A DNA stretch of 5,573 nt from a bacterium (GCA_027080315.1 JALWSI010000135.1:1-5573), one strand, 5' to 3'. Positions 1 to 5,573 are shown, counted from the first letter of the stretch. The notes: generated by a model from the sequence alone, not told the origin. Made by a program: numbers and translations.

Positions 1-380
1 AACCCCTAACACTTGAGCAGGATAGCATTCCCTTGAAAGGACACTCCATTGAGTGTCGTATCTACGCAGAGGATCCAGACAAGAACTTCATGCCCTCTCC
101 AGGAAAGCTCACCAAATGGGTTGTGCCCCAGGTGGAGAACACCAGAATAGACGGAGGGGTGAGAGAAGGAGACACCGTAACCCCCTACTACGATCCTCTT
201 CTCGCCAAGTTCGTGAGCTGGGGAGAGACAAGGGATAAGGCCATTGAGACCATGCTTGAGCTCTTAAAGGGCACCCAGGTGGAAGGAATAAAGACCAACA
301 TCTCCTTCCACATCAAAGCGTTGGAGAGTCCCCTTTTCAGAAGCGGGGATATCCATACAGGATTCATCAATCTCATTTAA
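1..380 (+). CDS. Biotin carboxylase subunit of an acyl-CoA carboxylase (3' end only)
   Basis: This is the C-terminal part of the ATP-dependent subunit that carboxylates biotin on the carrier protein. The frame is open from base 3, so the gene begins outside the window; the TTG at 33 is internal, not a start. About 125 residues are visible, out of roughly 450-500 usual for a stand-alone subunit. They match the biotin carboxylase C-terminal domain: PLTLEQD, then GHSIECRIYAEDP, then MPSPGKL, then TRIDGGVREGDTV with PYYDPLLAK. The Arg of TRIDGG lies where the catalytic Arg338 of E. coli AccC falls. The end, GIKTNISFH...FRSG...TGFI, is the usual terminus. No biotin domain is fused; the carrier is encoded 19 bases downstream, as in Bacillus YngH/YngHB-type carboxylases. 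The family is clear. The acyl substrate cannot be read from this subunit; 3-methylcrotonyl-CoA is inferred from the neighbours. Confidence 0.95.
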   Translation, partial: PLTLEQDSIPLKGHSIECRIYAEDPDKNFMPSPGKLTKWVVPQVENTRIDGGVREGDTVTPYYDPLLAKFVSWGETRDKAIETMLELLKGTQVEGIKTNISFHIKALESPLFRSGDIHTGFINLI

Positions 381-624: not shown

Positions 625-1407
625 ATGGGCGACGAGAGACTGGTGGTCAAGACTCAGCGGGGATTTGTTACCCTGCTGAGCCTTAGCAGGCCAAAACAGC
701 ACAACGCCTTAAGCAAGGCCCTCTTAACAGCCCTGGGAGAAGCAATAGAGGAGTGCTGGCACGACACCTCTGTTCGGGTGGTTATGATCACAGGAGAAGG
801 GCCCTCATTCTGTGCCGGAGCAGACCTCAAAGAGCGCGCCCAGATGCCGGAAGAGGAGGTTGCCCGGTTTGTCTCAAAGATTCGCAGCACCTTTGGAATG
901 CTGCAGGAGATGCCAAAACCCGTAATTGCCCTCATAAACGGCGGCGCCTTTGGAGGCGGCCTTGAGATGGCCTTGGCCTGTGACATCCGCATAGCAGCAG
1001 AGGGTGCCATTATGGGGCTCACCGAGACCAGCCTGGGCATCATTCCAGGGGCTGGTGGCACTCAAAGGCTGCCCCGGGTGGTTGGAGTGGCAAAGGCCAA
1101 AGAGCTCATCTTCACCGCCCGCCGGGTTGATGCCCGTGAGGCCTATGCCCTGGGCATGGTGAACCTTGTGGTGCCCAAAGACCGTCTTTTAGGTGCAGGA
1201 TGGGAGATGGCAGAAAGGATAGCCAAGAACGGCCCCATTGCCGTTGCCATGGCTAAGGAGGCCATCAACCGTGGATCAGAGGTGGATATAGCCACTGGCT
1301 TGGCCATTGAGGCACGGTGCTACGACGTCATTGTGCCCACTGAAGATCGGATTGAAGGACTAACCGCCTTCAAGGAGAAGAGAGAGCCCCGCTACAAGGG
1401 CAGGTGA
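625..1407 (+). CDS. Enoyl-CoA hydratase, probable methylglutaconyl-CoA hydratase (AUH/LiuC-like)
   Basis: This is a 260-residue crotonase-fold protein of full family length. Its probable job is adding water to 3-methylglutaconyl-CoA to give (S)-HMG-CoA. Visible elements are CAGADLKE (63-70), the first oxyanion-hole region; GGAFGGGLE (106-114), with Glu114 matching Glu144 of rat enoyl-CoA hydratase; and TETSLGIIPGAGGTQRLP (133-150), with Glu134 matching Glu164. Both acid/base glutamates are present, so it should be an active hydratase. The assignment to methylglutaconyl-CoA rests on the C-terminal third: AKELIFTAR, AKEAINRGSEVDIATGLAIE, PTEDRIEGLTAFKEKR and PRYKG closely follow human AUH as I recall it. 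The lysine-rich helix linked to RNA binding in AUH is not kept. It begins 12 bases after the carrier gene and lies between carboxylase subunits, as in leucine-degradation operons. A broader-range hydratase is the main alternative. Confidence 0.87.
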   Translation: MGDERLVVKTQRGFVTLLSLSRPKQHNALSKALLTALGEAIEECWHDTSVRVVMITGEGPSFCAGADLKERAQMPEEEVARFVSKIRSTFGMLQEMPKPVIALINGGAFGGGLEMALACDIRIAAEGAIMGLTETSLGIIPGAGGTQRLPRVVGVAKAKELIFTARRVDAREAYALGMVNLVVPKDRLLGAGWEMAERIAKNGPIAVAMAKEAINRGSEVDIATGLAIEARCYDVIVPTEDRIEGLTAFKEKREPRYKGR

Positions 1408-1416
1408 GGCTAAATT

Positions 1417-1427
1417 TAAGGAGGTGA
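1417..1427 (+). promoter_or_regulatory. Very strong ribosome binding site of the carboxyltransferase gene
   Basis: TAAGGAGGTGA is an 11-base uninterrupted complement to the usual bacterial 16S rRNA 3' end, five bases before the ATG at 1433. It fixes the start and predicts high translation of this subunit. By contrast the hydratase just upstream has only a weak site (GAGTGATC, 607-614, overlapping the carrier stop) and probably relies on coupling to the carrier gene. Confidence 0.75.
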
Positions 1428-1432
1428 GATAG

Positions 1433-2974
1433 ATGGCAACAAAGGGAGAGGAGCTTGCCGCCGTAAGGGAACGCATTCTCCAGATGGGCCCTGAGCGGCA
1501 CAAGAAAAGGGTGAAAGAGGATTACGGCAAGCTGTTGTGCCGTGAGCGGTTGGAGATTCTGCTGGACGAAGGTAGTATCGTAGAAGACGGTCTCATGGCC
1601 AACTGCTTAGATGAAGAGCTGGCAGCAGACGGCGTGGTGACCGTGCTTGGCCGCATAAACGGCCGCGAAGTTGCGGTTATGGCCAATGACTTCAGCGTTA
1701 AGGCAGGCTCCTGGGGAGCCCGAACAGTTGAGAAGATCATCCGCATACAAGAGACCGCCATGCGTCTTCACATCCCCATGATCTATCTGGTTGATTCAGC
1801 GGGTCTTCGCATCACAGACCAGCTCTTCTGCTTCCCAGGCCGCAGGCACGCAGGACGCATATTCCACCTACAGGCCCTAATGTCAGGAATGATTCCACAG
1901 ATCTGCGTGCTCTCAGGACCCTCTGCCGCTGGAGGCGCCTACATTCCCACCTTCTGCGATGTGATAATCGCCGTTGATAAGCTGGGTGCAATGTACCTTG
2001 GCTCTCCGAGAATGGCAGAGGTCACCATAGGTGAAAAGGTGACCCTTGAAGAGATGGGTGGGGCAAAGATGCACTGTGCCGTGAGCGGGGTGGCAGACGT
2101 CTTCGCCAAGACAGAAGAAGAGGCCCTGCAGGCGGTGAAGGACTACCTCTCTTACTTCCCCCCCAACTACACTGAAGATCCCCCTGTTTACGAACCCAAA
2201 GAGCCAGAGAAGTCCCTGGAAGATATAGAGAAGATAGTACCCCCCAACCAGAACCAGCCCTTTGACATGTACGAGCTTATCTGGCGTATCATTGACCAGG
2301 GAAGCTGGTTTGAGATGAAGAAGCTCTGGGCGCAAGAGATCATCACCGGCTTCTGCCGCATCAATGGCCAGCCTGTGGGCATAATAGCCAACCAGCCCAA
2401 GATTAAAGGCGGGGTGCTATTCGTTGACTCTGCCGACAAGGCCTGCAGGTTCATAAGGCTGTGCGATGCCTTCAACATCCCGCTGCTCTACCTTATGGAC
2501 GTGCCTGGCTTCATGATTGGATCCGCTGTGGAGAAGGCGGGGATTCTGCGACATGGATGTAAGATGCTCTATGCGGTTTCTGAGGCCACGGTGCCCAAGA
2601 TCTCTGTGATCGTGCGCAAGGCTTACGGGGCAGGGCTCTACGCCATGTGCGGCCCCTCCCACGAGCCCGATGCCTGTATCGCATTTCCTGGCGCCATGGT
2701 GGCGGTGATGGGTCCCGAGGCAGCAGTGAACGCGGTTTACTACAACAAGATCCAGGAGATTGAAGACAAGAAAGAGCAGATGAAGTTCCGCATGGAGAAG
2801 CAGAAGGAGTACAGCGAGCAGGTAAACATCTACAAAGTGGCTGCAGACCTGATTGTTGACGACGTGATTGTGCCCCAGAACCTGAGAAAAGAGCTTATTG
2901 CAAGGTTCTCTTACTACAAGAAGAAGCCCGGAGAGCTAAGGTATCCCAAGAAACACGGGGTGATGCAGGTATAA
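1433..2974 (+). CDS. Acyl-CoA carboxylase carboxyltransferase (beta) subunit, probably methylcrotonyl-CoA type
   Basis: This 513-residue protein transfers the carboxyl group from carboxybiotin to an acyl-CoA. It has the tandem crotonase-fold layout: N-terminal domain about 25-255, C-terminal domain about 275-500. In the N domain, ADGVVTVLGRINGR (65-78), SWGARTVEKI (93-102), DSAG (121-124), FPGRR (134-138) and GPSAAGGAYIP (162-172) are typical, the last holding an oxyanion-hole glycine pair. The C domain has DVPGFMIG (356-363), VPKISVIVRKAYGAG (387-401) and the second oxyanion region, then a charged helix (441-462) and VDDVIVP (475-481). Nearest in style are Bacillus YngE-type subunits. Some features (RKAYGAG) recall propionyl-CoA carboxylase, others (AMCG) methylcrotonyl-CoA carboxylase, so substrate rests mainly on the adjacent AUH-like hydratase. 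Propionyl- or glutaconyl-type substrates remain possible. The start is fixed by a very strong ribosome site. Confidence 0.9.
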   Translation: MATKGEELAAVRERILQMGPERHKKRVKEDYGKLLCRERLEILLDEGSIVEDGLMANCLDEELAADGVVTVLGRINGREVAVMANDFSVKAGSWGARTVEKIIRIQETAMRLHIPMIYLVDSAGLRITDQLFCFPGRRHAGRIFHLQALMSGMIPQICVLSGPSAAGGAYIPTFCDVIIAVDKLGAMYLGSPRMAEVTIGEKVTLEEMGGAKMHCAVSGVADVFAKTEEEALQAVKDYLSYFPPNYTEDPPVYEPKEPEKSLEDIEKIVPPNQNQPFDMYELIWRIIDQGSWFEMKKLWAQEIITGFCRINGQPVGIIANQPKIKGGVLFVDSADKACRFIRLCDAFNIPLLYLMDVPGFMIGSAVEKAGILRHGCKMLYAVSEATVPKISVIVRKAYGAGLYAMCGPSHEPDACIAFPGAMVAVMGPEAAVNAVYYNKIQEIEDKKEQMKFRMEKQKEYSEQVNIYKVAADLIVDDVIVPQNLRKELIARFSYYKKKPGELRYPKKHGVMQV

Positions 2975-2996
2975 TTTAAGTTTCGCCAAAACAGGG

Positions 2997-3026
2997 TTGA
3001 CAAAACTAAACAACCGTGGTTTTATT
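2997..3026 (+). promoter_or_regulatory. Candidate sigma70-type promoter ahead of the HMG-CoA synthase
   Basis: The 84-base gap between carboxyltransferase and synthase is the longest in the window. It holds a perfect TTGACA (2997-3002) followed, 18 bases on, by TTTATT (3021-3026), which matches TATAAT at only three of six positions. The start codon lies about 33 bases further on, leaving a short leader with the ribosome site. No terminator hairpin is visible between the two genes, so this would be an internal promoter supplementing read-through. The weak -10 makes this tentative; it might need an activator. Confidence 0.4.
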
Positions 3027-3034
3027 GGATCCAA
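3012..3034. repeat. Two adjacent short palindromes, possible operator
   Basis: AACCGTGGTT (3012-3021) is an inverted repeat with 4-base arms around GT. Four bases on, TTGGATCCAA (3025-3034) is a perfect 10-base palindrome. The first lies in the spacer of the candidate promoter and the second over its -10 and downstream edge, where a repressor could act. Short palindromes occur by chance, so the support is positional only. Confidence 0.25.
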
Positions 3035-3058
3035 GATCCGCAAGAGAGGAGGATTGGC

Positions 3059-4126
3059 ATGGCAGTAGGAATCGTTGGATACGGGGGCTATGTGCCCAGG
3101 TACCGTATCAAGGCCGAAGAGATCGCCGCCCAGTGGGGAGACGATCCAGAGGTTATCAAGAGAGGCCTGCTTCTCTACGAGAAGACGGTGCCTGGACAGG
3201 ATGAAGACACCATCACCATTGCCTATCAGGCGGCCAAATACGCTTTGGTGAGAGCCGGGATAGACCCCAAAGAGATCGGGGCCCTCTACATAGGTTCAGA
3301 GTCTCACCCCTACGCGGTGAAGCCCTCTGGTACCGTTGTGGCTCAGGCTTTGGGTATGACTCCCGAGATCCACATTGCAGACTACGAGTTTGCCTGCAAG
3401 GCCGGAGCAGAGGCCATGTTTGTAGCCTATTCACACGTGAAGTCGGGCAACATGAAATACGCTATGGCCATTGGAGCAGACACCTCTCAAGGAGCACCGG
3501 CAGACGCCCTTGAGTACTCTGCTGCAGCAGGAGGCTCTGCCTTCATCATGGGAGCCGACGAAGATAAGATCATTGCAGAGATCCTCTACACCTACTCCTA
3601 CACCACAGACACCCCCGACTTCTGGCGCAGGGAGCACGAGATGTATCCCCAGCATGGAGGACGCTTCACAGGAGAGCCTGCCTACTTCAAGCACGTGGTC
3701 TCTGCCGGAAAGAACATCATGGATATGGCAGGACTCACAGCCAAGGACATCAAGTGGGCTGTCTTCCACATGCCCAACGGAAAGTTCCCCTTAAGGGCAG
3801 GGGCAAAGCTGGGCTTCAAGAAAGAGCAGATTGAACCAGGTTGGGTGGTTCCCTGGCAGGGTAACACCTACTCAGGAGCATCTCCCAACGGCTTAACCGC
3901 AACCTTAGACAAGGTGGCTCAGCCTGGGGATCTCATCCTCATGGTCTCCTTCGGTTCTGGTGCAGGATCCGACTCCTTCATCTTCAGGGTGACCGAGAGG
4001 ATCAACGAGGTGCGAGACATGGTTCCACACCTCTGGGATCTCATCCACACAGACAAGAAACAGTATCTCACCTACGGCCAGTATGCCAAGTTCCGGGGTA
4101 AGATACACCTTAACCCCTCGGTATAA
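3059..4126 (+). CDS. Archaeal-type hydroxymethylglutaryl-CoA synthase
   Basis: This 355-residue thiolase-superfamily enzyme normally condenses acetyl-CoA with acetoacetyl-CoA and water to HMG-CoA and CoA. Length and motifs fit the archaeal branch (about 350 aa) rather than the roughly 390-aa bacterial Mva[17 protein letters not shown] (3-18), [13 protein letters not shown] (77-89), DYEFACKAG (108-116), [14 protein letters not shown] (178-191), [14 protein letters not shown] (199-212) and FGSGAGSD (298-305). The expected triad is present: Glu81 in GSES, nucleophile Cys113 in FACKAG and His237 in [10 protein letters not shown]. The C-terminal YAKFRGKI (342-349) is also archaeal-like. All three catalytic residues are present, so it should be active. 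GAGGAGG at 3046-3052 sets the start. It lies 12 bases upstream of its usual complex partner, a thiolase. In this operon it may act in reverse, cleaving HMG-CoA; that is inference. A related 3-ketoacyl synthase with another substrate is less likely. Confidence 0.9.
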
Positions 4127-4131
4127 GGAGG
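4124..4131 (+). promoter_or_regulatory. Ribosome binding site of the thiolase, overlapping the synthase stop codon
   Basis: TAAGGAGG includes the TAA stop (4124-4126) of the HMG-CoA synthase and sits seven bases before the thiolase ATG. A ribosome ending on the synthase covers this site, so the two partners are probably made together in near-equal amounts, as a shared complex would need. Confidence 0.7.
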
Positions 4132-4138
4132 AGTTGCT

Positions 4139-5287
4139 ATGAGAGATGTGGCCGTTATCGGAGTAGGAATAACCAAATTCGGAGAGCTCTGGTGGCAGAA
4201 CCTAAGAGAGCTCTACGTTGAGGCGGCCTTAAAGGCCATAAAGGACGCTGGTGTGGATCACATTGACTCCATGTATGTAGGGTGCATGACCAGCGGTCTC
4301 TTCTGCGCACAAGAGCATCTCGGCTCTTTAATGGCAGACTATTTAGGGGTAAATCCCATTCCCGCATACCGCATAGAGTCAGCCTGCGCATCAGGAGGAC
4401 TCGCCTTCAGACTGGGCTTCATTGAGGTGGCCTCTGGAATGAGCGACATCGTCCTCGTTGGCGGAGTTGAGAAGATGCTCACCGGCGCAGACGCCACCTA
4501 TGCCTTGGCCTCTGCTGCTGACCAGGAATACGAAGCCTTCCATGGCAACACCTTCCCCGGACTTTACGCAATGATCGCAAAGGCCCACATGGAGAAGTAC
4601 GGAACCACCAGGCGCCAGATGGCTGCCGTTGCAGTGAAGAATCATGAGAACGGCTCCAAGAACCCCAACGCACAGTTCCCCATGAAGATCACCATTGACA
4701 CGGTGCTCAACGCCACCCCAGTGGCGGATCCCCTTGGACTCATGGACTGCAGTCCTGTGACAGACGGAGCAGCTGCTGTGATTCTGTGCCCCGCCGACCA
4801 GGCCAAGAAGTACACCGACACCATAGTGAAGGTGATAGGCTCTGGCGCAGCAACTTCAACCATAGCCCTGCATCAGCGTGAAGACATCACCTTCTTGGAT
4901 GCAGTGTACAACGCCGGCAAGATGGCCTACAACATGGCCGGCTTGAAGCCCGAAGATATTGACTTTGCAGAGGTTCACGACTGCTTCACCATCGCAGAGA
5001 TCTGCTGCATTGAGGCCCTTGGCTTCTGTGAGAAGGGCCAGGGTGGCCCCTTCTCTGAGGCAGGAAACACCGCCCTTGACGGCAAGAAGCCCATCAACAC
5101 CAGTGGCGGACTGAAGTCTAAAGGCCATCCCGTAGGGGCAACCGGCGTAGCCCAGATCGTTGAGGTGGTTGAGCAGCTTAGGGGCAACGCAGGAGAGCGT
5201 CAGCTCAAGAGCCCCAAGAGGGGACTTGCCCAGAACATGGGCGGTTCAGGTGGAAGCTCTGTGGTTCACATCCTGGAGGTGGAGTGA
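4139..5287 (+). CDS. Acetyl-CoA C-acetyltransferase, archaeal/SCP2-type thiolase
   Basis: This 382-residue thiolase is of the kind that pairs with archaeal HMG-CoA synthase. It interconverts two acetyl-CoA and acetoacetyl-CoA plus CoA. The N-terminus [15 protein letters not shown] (4-18) is typical of the group. The nucleophile is Cys83 in [11 protein letters not shown] (80-90). His280 and Cys282 fall in the VHDCF motif, and His330 in GHPVGATG. The classical C-terminal CxG motif is replaced by NMGGSGG (366-372). In SCP2-type thiolases the cysteine of HDCF is held to do that job, so the replacement does not predict inactivity. Other marks are [19 protein letters not shown] (195-213) and [12 protein letters not shown] (320-331). 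The ribosome site TAAGGAGG contains the stop codon of the preceding gene. In methanogens this enzyme, the synthase and a DUF35 protein form one complex with a shared CoA tunnel; that all three genes are adjacent here argues for the same assembly. Confidence 0.92.
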
Positions 5288-5573
5288 TGATAGTTCCCAG
5301 ACACTACAAAGAGATGCCCCAGCGCTACCGCTTAGAGGGGAACAAGTGCAAGAAGTGCGGCAAGGTCTTTCTGCCCCCCAGATTGGTCTGCCCCTGTGGC
5401 TCGGAAGAGTTTGAGCCCTGCAACCTTGACTGGAAGGGCAAGATCCTCTCTTTCACCATCATTCGTACCCCTCCCGAGAACTTCAAGTACCAGAAGCCCT
5501 TTGCGGTTGCGTTGGTTGAGCTTGAGAACGGCGGTCGGCTTCAGTGCCAGGTGTGCGATACACCTTTAGACCA
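5287..5573 (+). CDS. DUF35 zinc-ribbon/OB-fold scaffold protein (5' part)
   Basis: Ninety-five residues are visible before the window ends; family members are usually about 130. In the archaeal complex this protein bridges thiolase and HMG-CoA synthase and helps form the shared CoA-binding site. The N-terminal helix has PQRYRL (11-16), the usual pattern before a rubredoxin-like zinc ribbon. Likely zinc ligands are Cys21 and Cys24 (CKKC) and Cys35 and Cys37 (CPCG). The second knuckle is C-x-C, one residue shorter than the usual C-x2-C. The OB-fold starts near residue 45, with [16 protein letters not shown] (51-66) and [12 protein letters not shown] (71-82). A second CxxC, Cys87 and Cys90, lies in the OB part. 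The start ATG overlaps the thiolase stop (TGATG), with GGAGGTG upstream at 5275-5281, so translation is probably coupled. Related proteins serve other thiolases, such as BbsA with BbsB in anaerobic toluene breakdown, but the synthase next door favours the HMG-CoA complex. Confidence 0.9.

What the first reader, a model, noticed from the sequence alone, without database searches (positions are those of the whole stretch)
625..5573. Possible lyase-free leucine/isovalerate pathway: HMG-CoA cleaved by a reversed HMG-CoA synthase/thiolase/DUF35 complex
Seen: carboxylase subunits, an AUH-like hydratase, then an archaeal-type HMG-CoA synthase, thiolase and DUF35 gene, all on one strand and closely spaced. 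Known: the hydratase product in leucine breakdown is HMG-CoA, normally split by HMG-CoA lyase to acetyl-CoA and acetoacetate, and acetoacetate must then be re-activated at the cost of a thioester. In methanogens the synthase/thiolase/DUF35 complex passes acetoacetyl-CoA directly and couples an unfavourable thiolase step to a favourable synthase step. Inferred: run backward, the same coupling would let favourable thiolysis pull HMG-CoA cleavage, giving three acetyl-CoA and saving a thioester, which matters for an energy-limited anaerobe. The synthase step is strongly favoured in the forward direction, so reversal needs the coupling.
Basis: partly seen in the sequence, partly recalled or inferred. 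Interest (0 to 1): 0.8.

Follow-up and report, generated by a model that had tools for sequence, protein, structure and literature searches.

The report
Leucine-breakdown operon without HMG-CoA lyase
A bacterial gene cluster for breaking down leucine or isovalerate lacks the usual last enzyme, HMG-CoA lyase, and carries an archaeal-type HMG-CoA synthase/thiolase complex in its place; the same pairing recurs in bacteria of many phyla, which suggests that a complex known for building mevalonate precursors runs backward to save energy.

Summary
The window is one whole contig of a 94%-complete bacterial genome and carries a one-strand operon: biotin carboxylase (cut at the 5' end), biotin carrier, methylglutaconyl-CoA-hydratase-like enzyme, carboxyltransferase, archaeal-type HMG-CoA synthase, thiolase, DUF35 (cut at the 3' end). 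Linkage of the synthase genes to the carboxylase/hydratase genes is seen in seven of the nine genomes of its order. No genome of the order has HMG-CoA reductase or a full-scoring HMG-CoA lyase; most have DXR, so the synthase is not for isoprenoids. The synthase/thiolase/DUF35 trio also adjoins bona fide methylcrotonyl-CoA carboxylase and a hydratase of a different subfamily in Aminicenantes, Zixibacteria, Bacteroidales, Stahlbacteria, Planctomycetes and others. Of 27 such linked genomes searched, 0 have HMG-CoA reductase and 22 lack HMG-CoA lyase; archaeal loci are never linked (0/9) and have the reductase (5/5 searched). Homologous clusters elsewhere carry a lyase instead. Direction is inferred, not shown: a biosynthetic, AIB-like direction remains the main rival. 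I found no earlier description in the papers held, which exclude most subscription journals.

The parts
3..380 (+). biotin carboxylase, C-terminal part (gene cut by the contig start)
   Evidence: PF02785 4e-40; full-length 447-aa orthologues in L035-L038
400..612 (+). 70-aa biotin carboxyl carrier protein with ESMKMM biotinylation motif
   Evidence: PF00364; NCBIfam PRK08225 79 bits
625..1407 (+). crotonase-family hydratase, best read as 3-methylglutaconyl-CoA hydratase
   Evidence: PDB: 3kqf 283 bits, human AUH 1hzd 258, Myxococcus LiuC 5jbw 249, shared ADLKERA motif; NCBIfam PRK07657 354 bits
1433..2974 (+). carboxyltransferase of an acyl-CoA carboxylase, probably 3-methylcrotonyl-CoA carboxylase beta
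   Evidence: PF01039; 62% identity to CT in an ACAD-CT-ECH-HMGL cluster, L248; best PDB hits are PCC beta
2975..3058 (+). 84-nt CT-HMGS gap with a TTGACA at 2997-3002 invariant in 7 genomes of the order (17 nt before TTTTAT 3020-3025): possible internal promoter
   Evidence: alignment A2; sequence
3059..4126 (+). archaeal-type HMG-CoA synthase; E81, C113 and H237 conserved in all 93 relatives aligned
   Evidence: TIGR00748 511 bits; 6ESQ_I 446 bits; residues
4139..5287 (+). acetoacetyl-CoA thiolase of the archaeal complex type (SCP2-thiolase-like)
   Evidence: 6ESQ_A 406 bits; NF053570 573 bits, cut-off 600
5284..5573 (+). DUF35 scaffold protein (zinc ribbon + OB fold), cut by the contig end
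   Evidence: PF12172 and PF01796; full orthologue L036:12230-12619 best PDB hit 6ESQ_E 113 bits

Best explanation
The operon encodes the lower half of leucine/isovalerate catabolism in which HMG-CoA lyase is replaced by an HMG-CoA synthase/thiolase/DUF35 complex. 3-Methylcrotonyl-CoA is carboxylated (BC, BCCP, CT), the 3-methylglutaconyl-CoA is hydrated (ECH) to HMG-CoA, and the complex runs in the cleavage direction: HMG-CoA + CoA gives acetyl-CoA + acetoacetyl-CoA, which the coupled thiolase splits with a second CoA. Net: HMG-CoA + 2 CoA gives 3 acetyl-CoA + H2O, one thioester more than the lyase route with CoA transfer. Shown: gene identities, conserved order, absence of lyase and reductase, recurrence in distant bacteria with a second, unrelated set of carboxylase and hydratase. 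Inferred: substrate, complex formation, direction and energy saving.
For: Operon linkage in 7 genomes of the order. No HMG-CoA lyase over cut-off in the order; the four HMGL-like hits of the own genome are two 2-isopropylmalate synthases, citramalate synthase and pyruvate carboxylase. No HMG-CoA reductase in the order; DXR in 6 of 9 incl. the own genome. In other phyla HMGS-THL-DUF35 adjoins true MCC beta (766 bits to human, 736 to Pseudomonas MCC), a different hydratase subfamily and sometimes acyl-CoA dehydrogenase: 29 of 71 bacterial loci linked; 27 linked genomes searched, 0 with reductase, 22 without lyase; archaeal loci 0/9 linked, 5/5 with reductase. Among 20 relatives with MCC beta, lyase is in 12 of 16 without and 1 of 4 with MCC-linked HMGS. 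The window's CT and ECH have homologues in clusters that carry a lyase (L248; ECH-HMGL neighbours L251, L253). Linkage is scattered over the HMGS tree, at least 10 changes forced by starred branches. All three subunits match 6ESQ.
Against: No biochemistry. HMG-CoA synthase is strongly favoured in the forward direction (my knowledge). 5 of 27 linked genomes do have a lyase (whole or fragment). The window's CT resembles propionyl-CoA carboxylase more than MCC structures. The operon carries no acyl-CoA dehydrogenase in the window's order. The own genome is 6% incomplete and in 253 contigs. G001 has a 131-bit lyase-like gene outside the operon (L212).
Confidence: 0.6

Rival explanations
1. The operon runs in the biosynthetic direction: three acetyl-CoA to HMG-CoA, dehydration, decarboxylation (carboxylase in reverse, or a glutaconate-CoA-transferase-like decarboxylase) and reduction to isovaleryl-CoA, for iso-branched lipids or as a fermentation product, like the myxobacterial alternative isovaleryl-CoA (AIB) pathway.
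For: HMGS and the complex are favoured in this direction. The AIB pathway, described as reversing the Liu pathway with an HMGS and LiuC, is real in Myxococcus (PMC9636800). The own genome has a PF01144 pair that also matches AibA/AibB (135 and 115 bits).
Against: The linked genes are ATP-dependent carboxylase subunits including biotin carboxylase, not AibA/B/C; the PF01144 pair scores higher to glutaconate CoA-transferase and lies in a B12 acyl-CoA mutase cluster. The loss of lyase in most linked genomes is not explained. In G065, Bacteroidales and others acyl-CoA dehydrogenase joins the cluster.
Confidence: 0.2
2. HMG-CoA is cleaved by an unrecognised DRE-TIM lyase (missed in the draft or diverged), while the HMGS/thiolase/DUF35 genes serve mainly as a thiolase for acetoacetyl-CoA or another role.
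For: Genome 94% complete; G001 has a 131-bit lyase-like protein and 5 of 27 linked genomes have lyase. The ECH closest to the window's outside its order lies beside two lyase-like genes of 190 and 222 bits (G292).
Against: No such gene in the other order genomes; the own genome's four hits are all accounted for. A thiolase alone would not need HMGS, whose catalytic residues are fully conserved.
Confidence: 0.12
3. Ordinary mevalonate/isoprenoid supply: HMGS makes HMG-CoA for HMG-CoA reductase.
For: The family's known role in archaea; two bacterial relatives (G067, G081) have both HMGS and reductase.
Against: No reductase in the 9 order genomes or in any of 27 linked genomes; DXR present.
Confidence: 0.03
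4. The carboxylase is a propionyl-/acetyl-CoA carboxylase, and the neighbouring genes belong to different pathways that merely share an operon.
For: CT scores best to PCC beta structures and lower to MCC beta; a conserved TTGACA before HMGS may be a separate promoter.
Against: The CT is 62% identical to one in an ACAD-ECH-HMGL cluster, the ECH is AUH-like, and the same functional neighbours recur with non-orthologous MCC and ECH in other phyla.
Confidence: 0.05

Closest known systems
Leu/Liu pathway of bacteria (e.g. Desulfococcus multivorans, Pseudomonas, Bacillus, Myxococcus)
   Same: Methylcrotonyl-CoA carboxylase and methylglutaconyl-CoA hydratase genes, clustered; same intermediates up to HMG-CoA
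   Different: HMG-CoA lyase (HmgL/LiuE), induced on isovalerate in D. multivorans (PMC5109826), is absent here and HMGS-thiolase-DUF35 is present instead
[quoted passage not shown]
   Same: All three subunits with full-length sequence similarity and conserved active-site residues
   Different: Here bacterial, in a catabolic operon, without HMG-CoA reductase; proposed to run in reverse
Myxobacterial alternative isovaleryl-CoA (AIB) pathway
   Same: Links an HMG-CoA synthase to the hydratase LiuC and to isovaleryl-CoA
   Different: AIB runs toward isovaleryl-CoA, uses MvaS and AibABC (no carboxylase)
Reversed oxidative TCA cycle (reverse citrate synthase)
   Same: Precedent for running a thioester-hydrolysing Claisen-type synthase backward (PMC9768450)
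   Different: Different enzyme family and pathway; no thiolase coupling

Membership tests
Archaeal thiolase/HMGS/DUF35 complex | HMG-CoA synthase of the archaeal equivalog | tested here: met
   TIGR00748 511 bits against cut-off 353
Archaeal thiolase/HMGS/DUF35 complex | Three adjacent genes matching the three subunits of 6ESQ | tested here: met
   order
Archaeal thiolase/HMGS/DUF35 complex | Catalytic Glu/Cys/His of HMGS | tested here: met
   E81, C113, H237 in 93/93
Archaeal thiolase/HMGS/DUF35 complex | Physical complex with shared CoA site | not testable with these tools
   needs protein; described for 6ESQ in PMC12329534
Mevalonate pathway | HMG-CoA reductase in the genome | tested here: not met
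   0 of 9 order genomes
Liu/leucine degradation pathway | Biotin carboxylase, BCCP and CT with methylglutaconyl-CoA hydratase | tested here: met
   substrate of CT inferred
Liu/leucine degradation pathway | HMG-CoA lyase | tested here: not met
   no hit over cut-off in the order; own hits are IPMS, CimA, PYC
Liu/leucine degradation pathway | Isovaleryl-CoA dehydrogenase | tested here: inconclusive
   8 acyl-CoA dehydrogenases in the genome, none in the operon; adjacent in other phyla
AIB pathway | AibA/AibB decarboxylase linked to HMGS | tested here: not met
   PF01144 pair is elsewhere, in a B12-mutase cluster, and closer to glutaconate CoA-transferase
Acetoacetate CoA-transferase (SCOT/Ato) of the lyase route | SCOT/Ato-type PF01144 gene | tested here: not met
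   only a glutaconate-type pair in the own genome; SCOT/acetoacetate transferase matches at most 49 bits

The most novel reading that the evidence does not exclude
Many bacterial lineages degrade leucine or isovalerate through a lyase-free route in which an archaeal-type HMG-CoA synthase/thiolase/DUF35 complex runs in reverse, giving three acetyl-CoA and saving a thioester; this would let anaerobes, including syntrophs, gain net ATP from isovalerate.
Probability: 0.55. Interest if true: 0.82.

Novelty: new variant of a known kind. Interest (0 to 1): 0.72.

Why it matters
[quoted passage not shown] By simple bookkeeping (inference), isovalerate via the lyase with acetyl-CoA as CoA donor gives no net ATP by substrate-level phosphorylation, while the lyase-free route gives one: the difference between a workable and an unworkable energy budget for a syntroph. 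It would also correct annotations: an orphan HMG-CoA synthase in a bacterial genome would mark leucine/isovalerate breakdown, not a mevalonate pathway.

Tried and rejected
Mevalonate role: rejected for this genome, no HMG-CoA reductase and DXR present. Beta-branching cassettes of trans-AT polyketide synthases (HMGS-like plus two ECH; met through PMC6163223): not followed, since the HMGS here meets the archaeal equivalog and adjoins thiolase/DUF35, not carrier-protein genes. Residues that tell carboxylase-linked from archaeal HMGS (39, 105, 118, 121, 248, 262): they mark the bacterial clade as a whole, including genomes with reductase, so they say nothing on direction. Repeats and simple promoter/terminator scans of the window: nothing of note except the intergenic TTGACA found by alignment. 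Paper searches for an earlier description found none; the Voegeli 2018 complex paper is not held. Structure prediction was not used: single-chain models would not test coupling or direction.

Full report
WHAT IS THERE. The window is a complete contig (G000:C135, 5573 bases) of a draft genome of 1.84 Mb, 94.2% complete and 2.8% contaminated. All annotated genes are on the + strand and tightly packed: BC C-terminus 3-380, BCCP 400-612, ECH 625-1407, CT 1433-2974, HMGS 3059-4126, thiolase 4139-5287, DUF35 5284-end.

CONSERVATION IN THE ORDER. Of the nine genomes of the order, seven have the synthase linked to the carboxylase genes. The order BC-BCCP-ECH-CT-HMGS-THL-DUF35 is complete in G001, G003, G005 and G006 and is cut by contig ends in the window's genome, G007 and G008. 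The two without HMGS are 88% and 71% complete. The gap before HMGS (73-84 nt in the members I measured) has an invariant TTGACA in all seven, so a second promoter for the HMGS module is possible.

WHAT IS MISSING. A search for HMG-CoA lyase (NF004283) gives no hit over the cut-off in any of the nine. The four HMGL-like hits of the own genome are two 2-isopropylmalate synthases, a citramalate synthase and pyruvate carboxylase. G001 has one 293-aa, 131-bit lyase-like protein next to unrelated genes (L212). HMG-CoA reductase is absent from all nine; DXR of the MEP pathway is found in the own genome and five others. The only PF01144 CoA-transferase pair of the own genome is glutaconate-type and sits between a B12-dependent acyl-CoA mutase large subunit and its small subunit, with acyl-CoA dehydrogenase upstream.

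IDENTITY OF THE ENZYMES. HMGS, thiolase and DUF35 all match the Methanothermococcus complex 6ESQ best (446, 406 and, for the full-length DUF35 of L036, 113 bits). HMGS E81, C113 and H237 are conserved in 93 of 93 relatives. The ECH groups with AUH and LiuC, known methylglutaconyl-CoA hydratases, with the ADLKERA motif. The CT is the weakest assignment: its best solved relatives are PCC beta (398 bits; human MCC beta 311). But it is 62% identical to the CT of a cluster ACAD-CT-ECH-HMGL in a 9-Mb genome (L248, where the lyase scores 425 bits), so this CT subfamily does occur in leucine clusters.

RECURRENCE ELSEWHERE. Within 10 kb, 29 of the 71 bacterial loci have carboxyltransferase, or ECH with BC; 25 have MCC beta-type CT of over 60% identity. 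Many contigs are short, so this is a lower bound. These CTs are bona fide MCC beta (766 bits to human, 736 to Pseudomonas), only 38% identical to the window's CT, and their ECH is another subfamily (31-32% identical). So the HMGS trio has been joined to two unrelated sets of the same two enzyme functions. Of 27 linked genomes searched, none has HMG-CoA reductase and 22 have no lyase hit of 130 bits or more. Of the archaeal loci none is linked and all five searched have the reductase. The two Aminicenantes genomes with a full lyase have a broken HMGS (TAG in L113) or thiolase (frameshift in L116) in the assembly, which may be assembly error. In 117 relatives, 20 have MCC beta of at least 58% identity: 12 of 16 without MCC-linked HMGS have lyase, against 1 of 4 with it. 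The linked relative G109 has a weak 41-bit partial reductase-like hit. The tree of 93 HMGS proteins separates most bacterial HMGS from archaeal ones, and linkage is scattered through it.

MECHANISM AND ENERGETICS. Proposed net reaction: HMG-CoA + 2 CoA = 3 acetyl-CoA + H2O. From my own knowledge the thiolase step is about +26 kJ/mol in the synthetic direction and HMGS about -30 to -36, so reversal costs some 5-10 kJ/mol under standard conditions. With 10 kJ/mol assumed, the net is +3.7 kJ/mol at acetyl-CoA/CoA 0.1/0.5 mM and HMG-CoA 0.05 mM, -1.4 at 0.05/0.5 and -9.1 at 0.02/0.6: feasible only at a low acetyl-CoA/CoA ratio, but not excluded. Reverse citrate synthase is the precedent (PMC9768450). 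The shared CoA site described for the archaeal complex (summarised in PMC12329534) would keep acetoacetyl-CoA bound. The own genome also has a thiolase/3-hydroxyacyl-CoA-dehydrogenase/acyl-CoA-dehydrogenase/EtfBA/Fe-S-oxidoreductase cluster (L209; names of the ORFs not scanned are read from their sequence), which fits a fatty-acid-oxidising anaerobe (inference).

RIVALS AND LIMITS. The myxobacterial AIB pathway shows that HMGS plus LiuC can run toward isovaleryl-CoA (PMC9636800). The ATP-dependent carboxylase, the replacement of lyase, and the acyl-CoA dehydrogenase in some clusters argue for catabolism, but gene content cannot fix direction. Nothing here measures activity. A prior report in a subscription journal cannot be excluded.

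Noticed in passing
window 2997-3025: TTGACA invariant in seven order genomes in the CT-HMGS gap, 17 nt before TTTTAT in the window: possible internal promoter or regulator site.
   Followed up: partly
L206 (G000:C12) 3-6866; also L207, L208: Conserved cluster acyl-CoA dehydrogenase, probable cobalamin adenosyltransferase, B12 acyl-CoA mutase large subunit, GctAB-like pair, mutase small subunit, MeaB-like protein: perhaps another branched-chain acyl-CoA route.
   Followed up: partly
L209 (G000:C172) 1763-9717; also L211, L213: Thiolase, 3-hydroxyacyl-CoA dehydrogenase, acyl-CoA dehydrogenase, EtfBA and a 672-aa Fe-S oxidoreductase in one cluster, as in syntrophic butyrate oxidisers.
   Followed up: partly
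L113 1-1043 and L116 about 10000-11300: Two Aminicenantes genomes that also carry HMG-CoA lyase have a stop inside HMGS or a frameshift inside thiolase of the linked cluster; may be assembly error or decay.
   Followed up: partly
L212 (G001:C32) 5979-6860: 131-bit HMG-CoA-lyase-like protein beside an SDR and what looks like a 4-hydroxybutyryl-CoA-dehydratase-type protein; role unknown.
   Followed up: no
L245 (G292:C48) 5892-10501: The ECH closest to the window's outside its order (55%) lies beside a distant CT (27%) and two lyase-like genes (222 and 190 bits, below the 246 cut-off).
   Followed up: partly
L075, L076, L087, L091, L093 and others: Gemmatimonadota and Chlorobi/Ignavibacteria loci have HMGS-THL with DUF35 but no carboxylase within 9 kb; most of those whose genomes were searched have no HMG-CoA reductase, so their role is open.
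   Followed up: no
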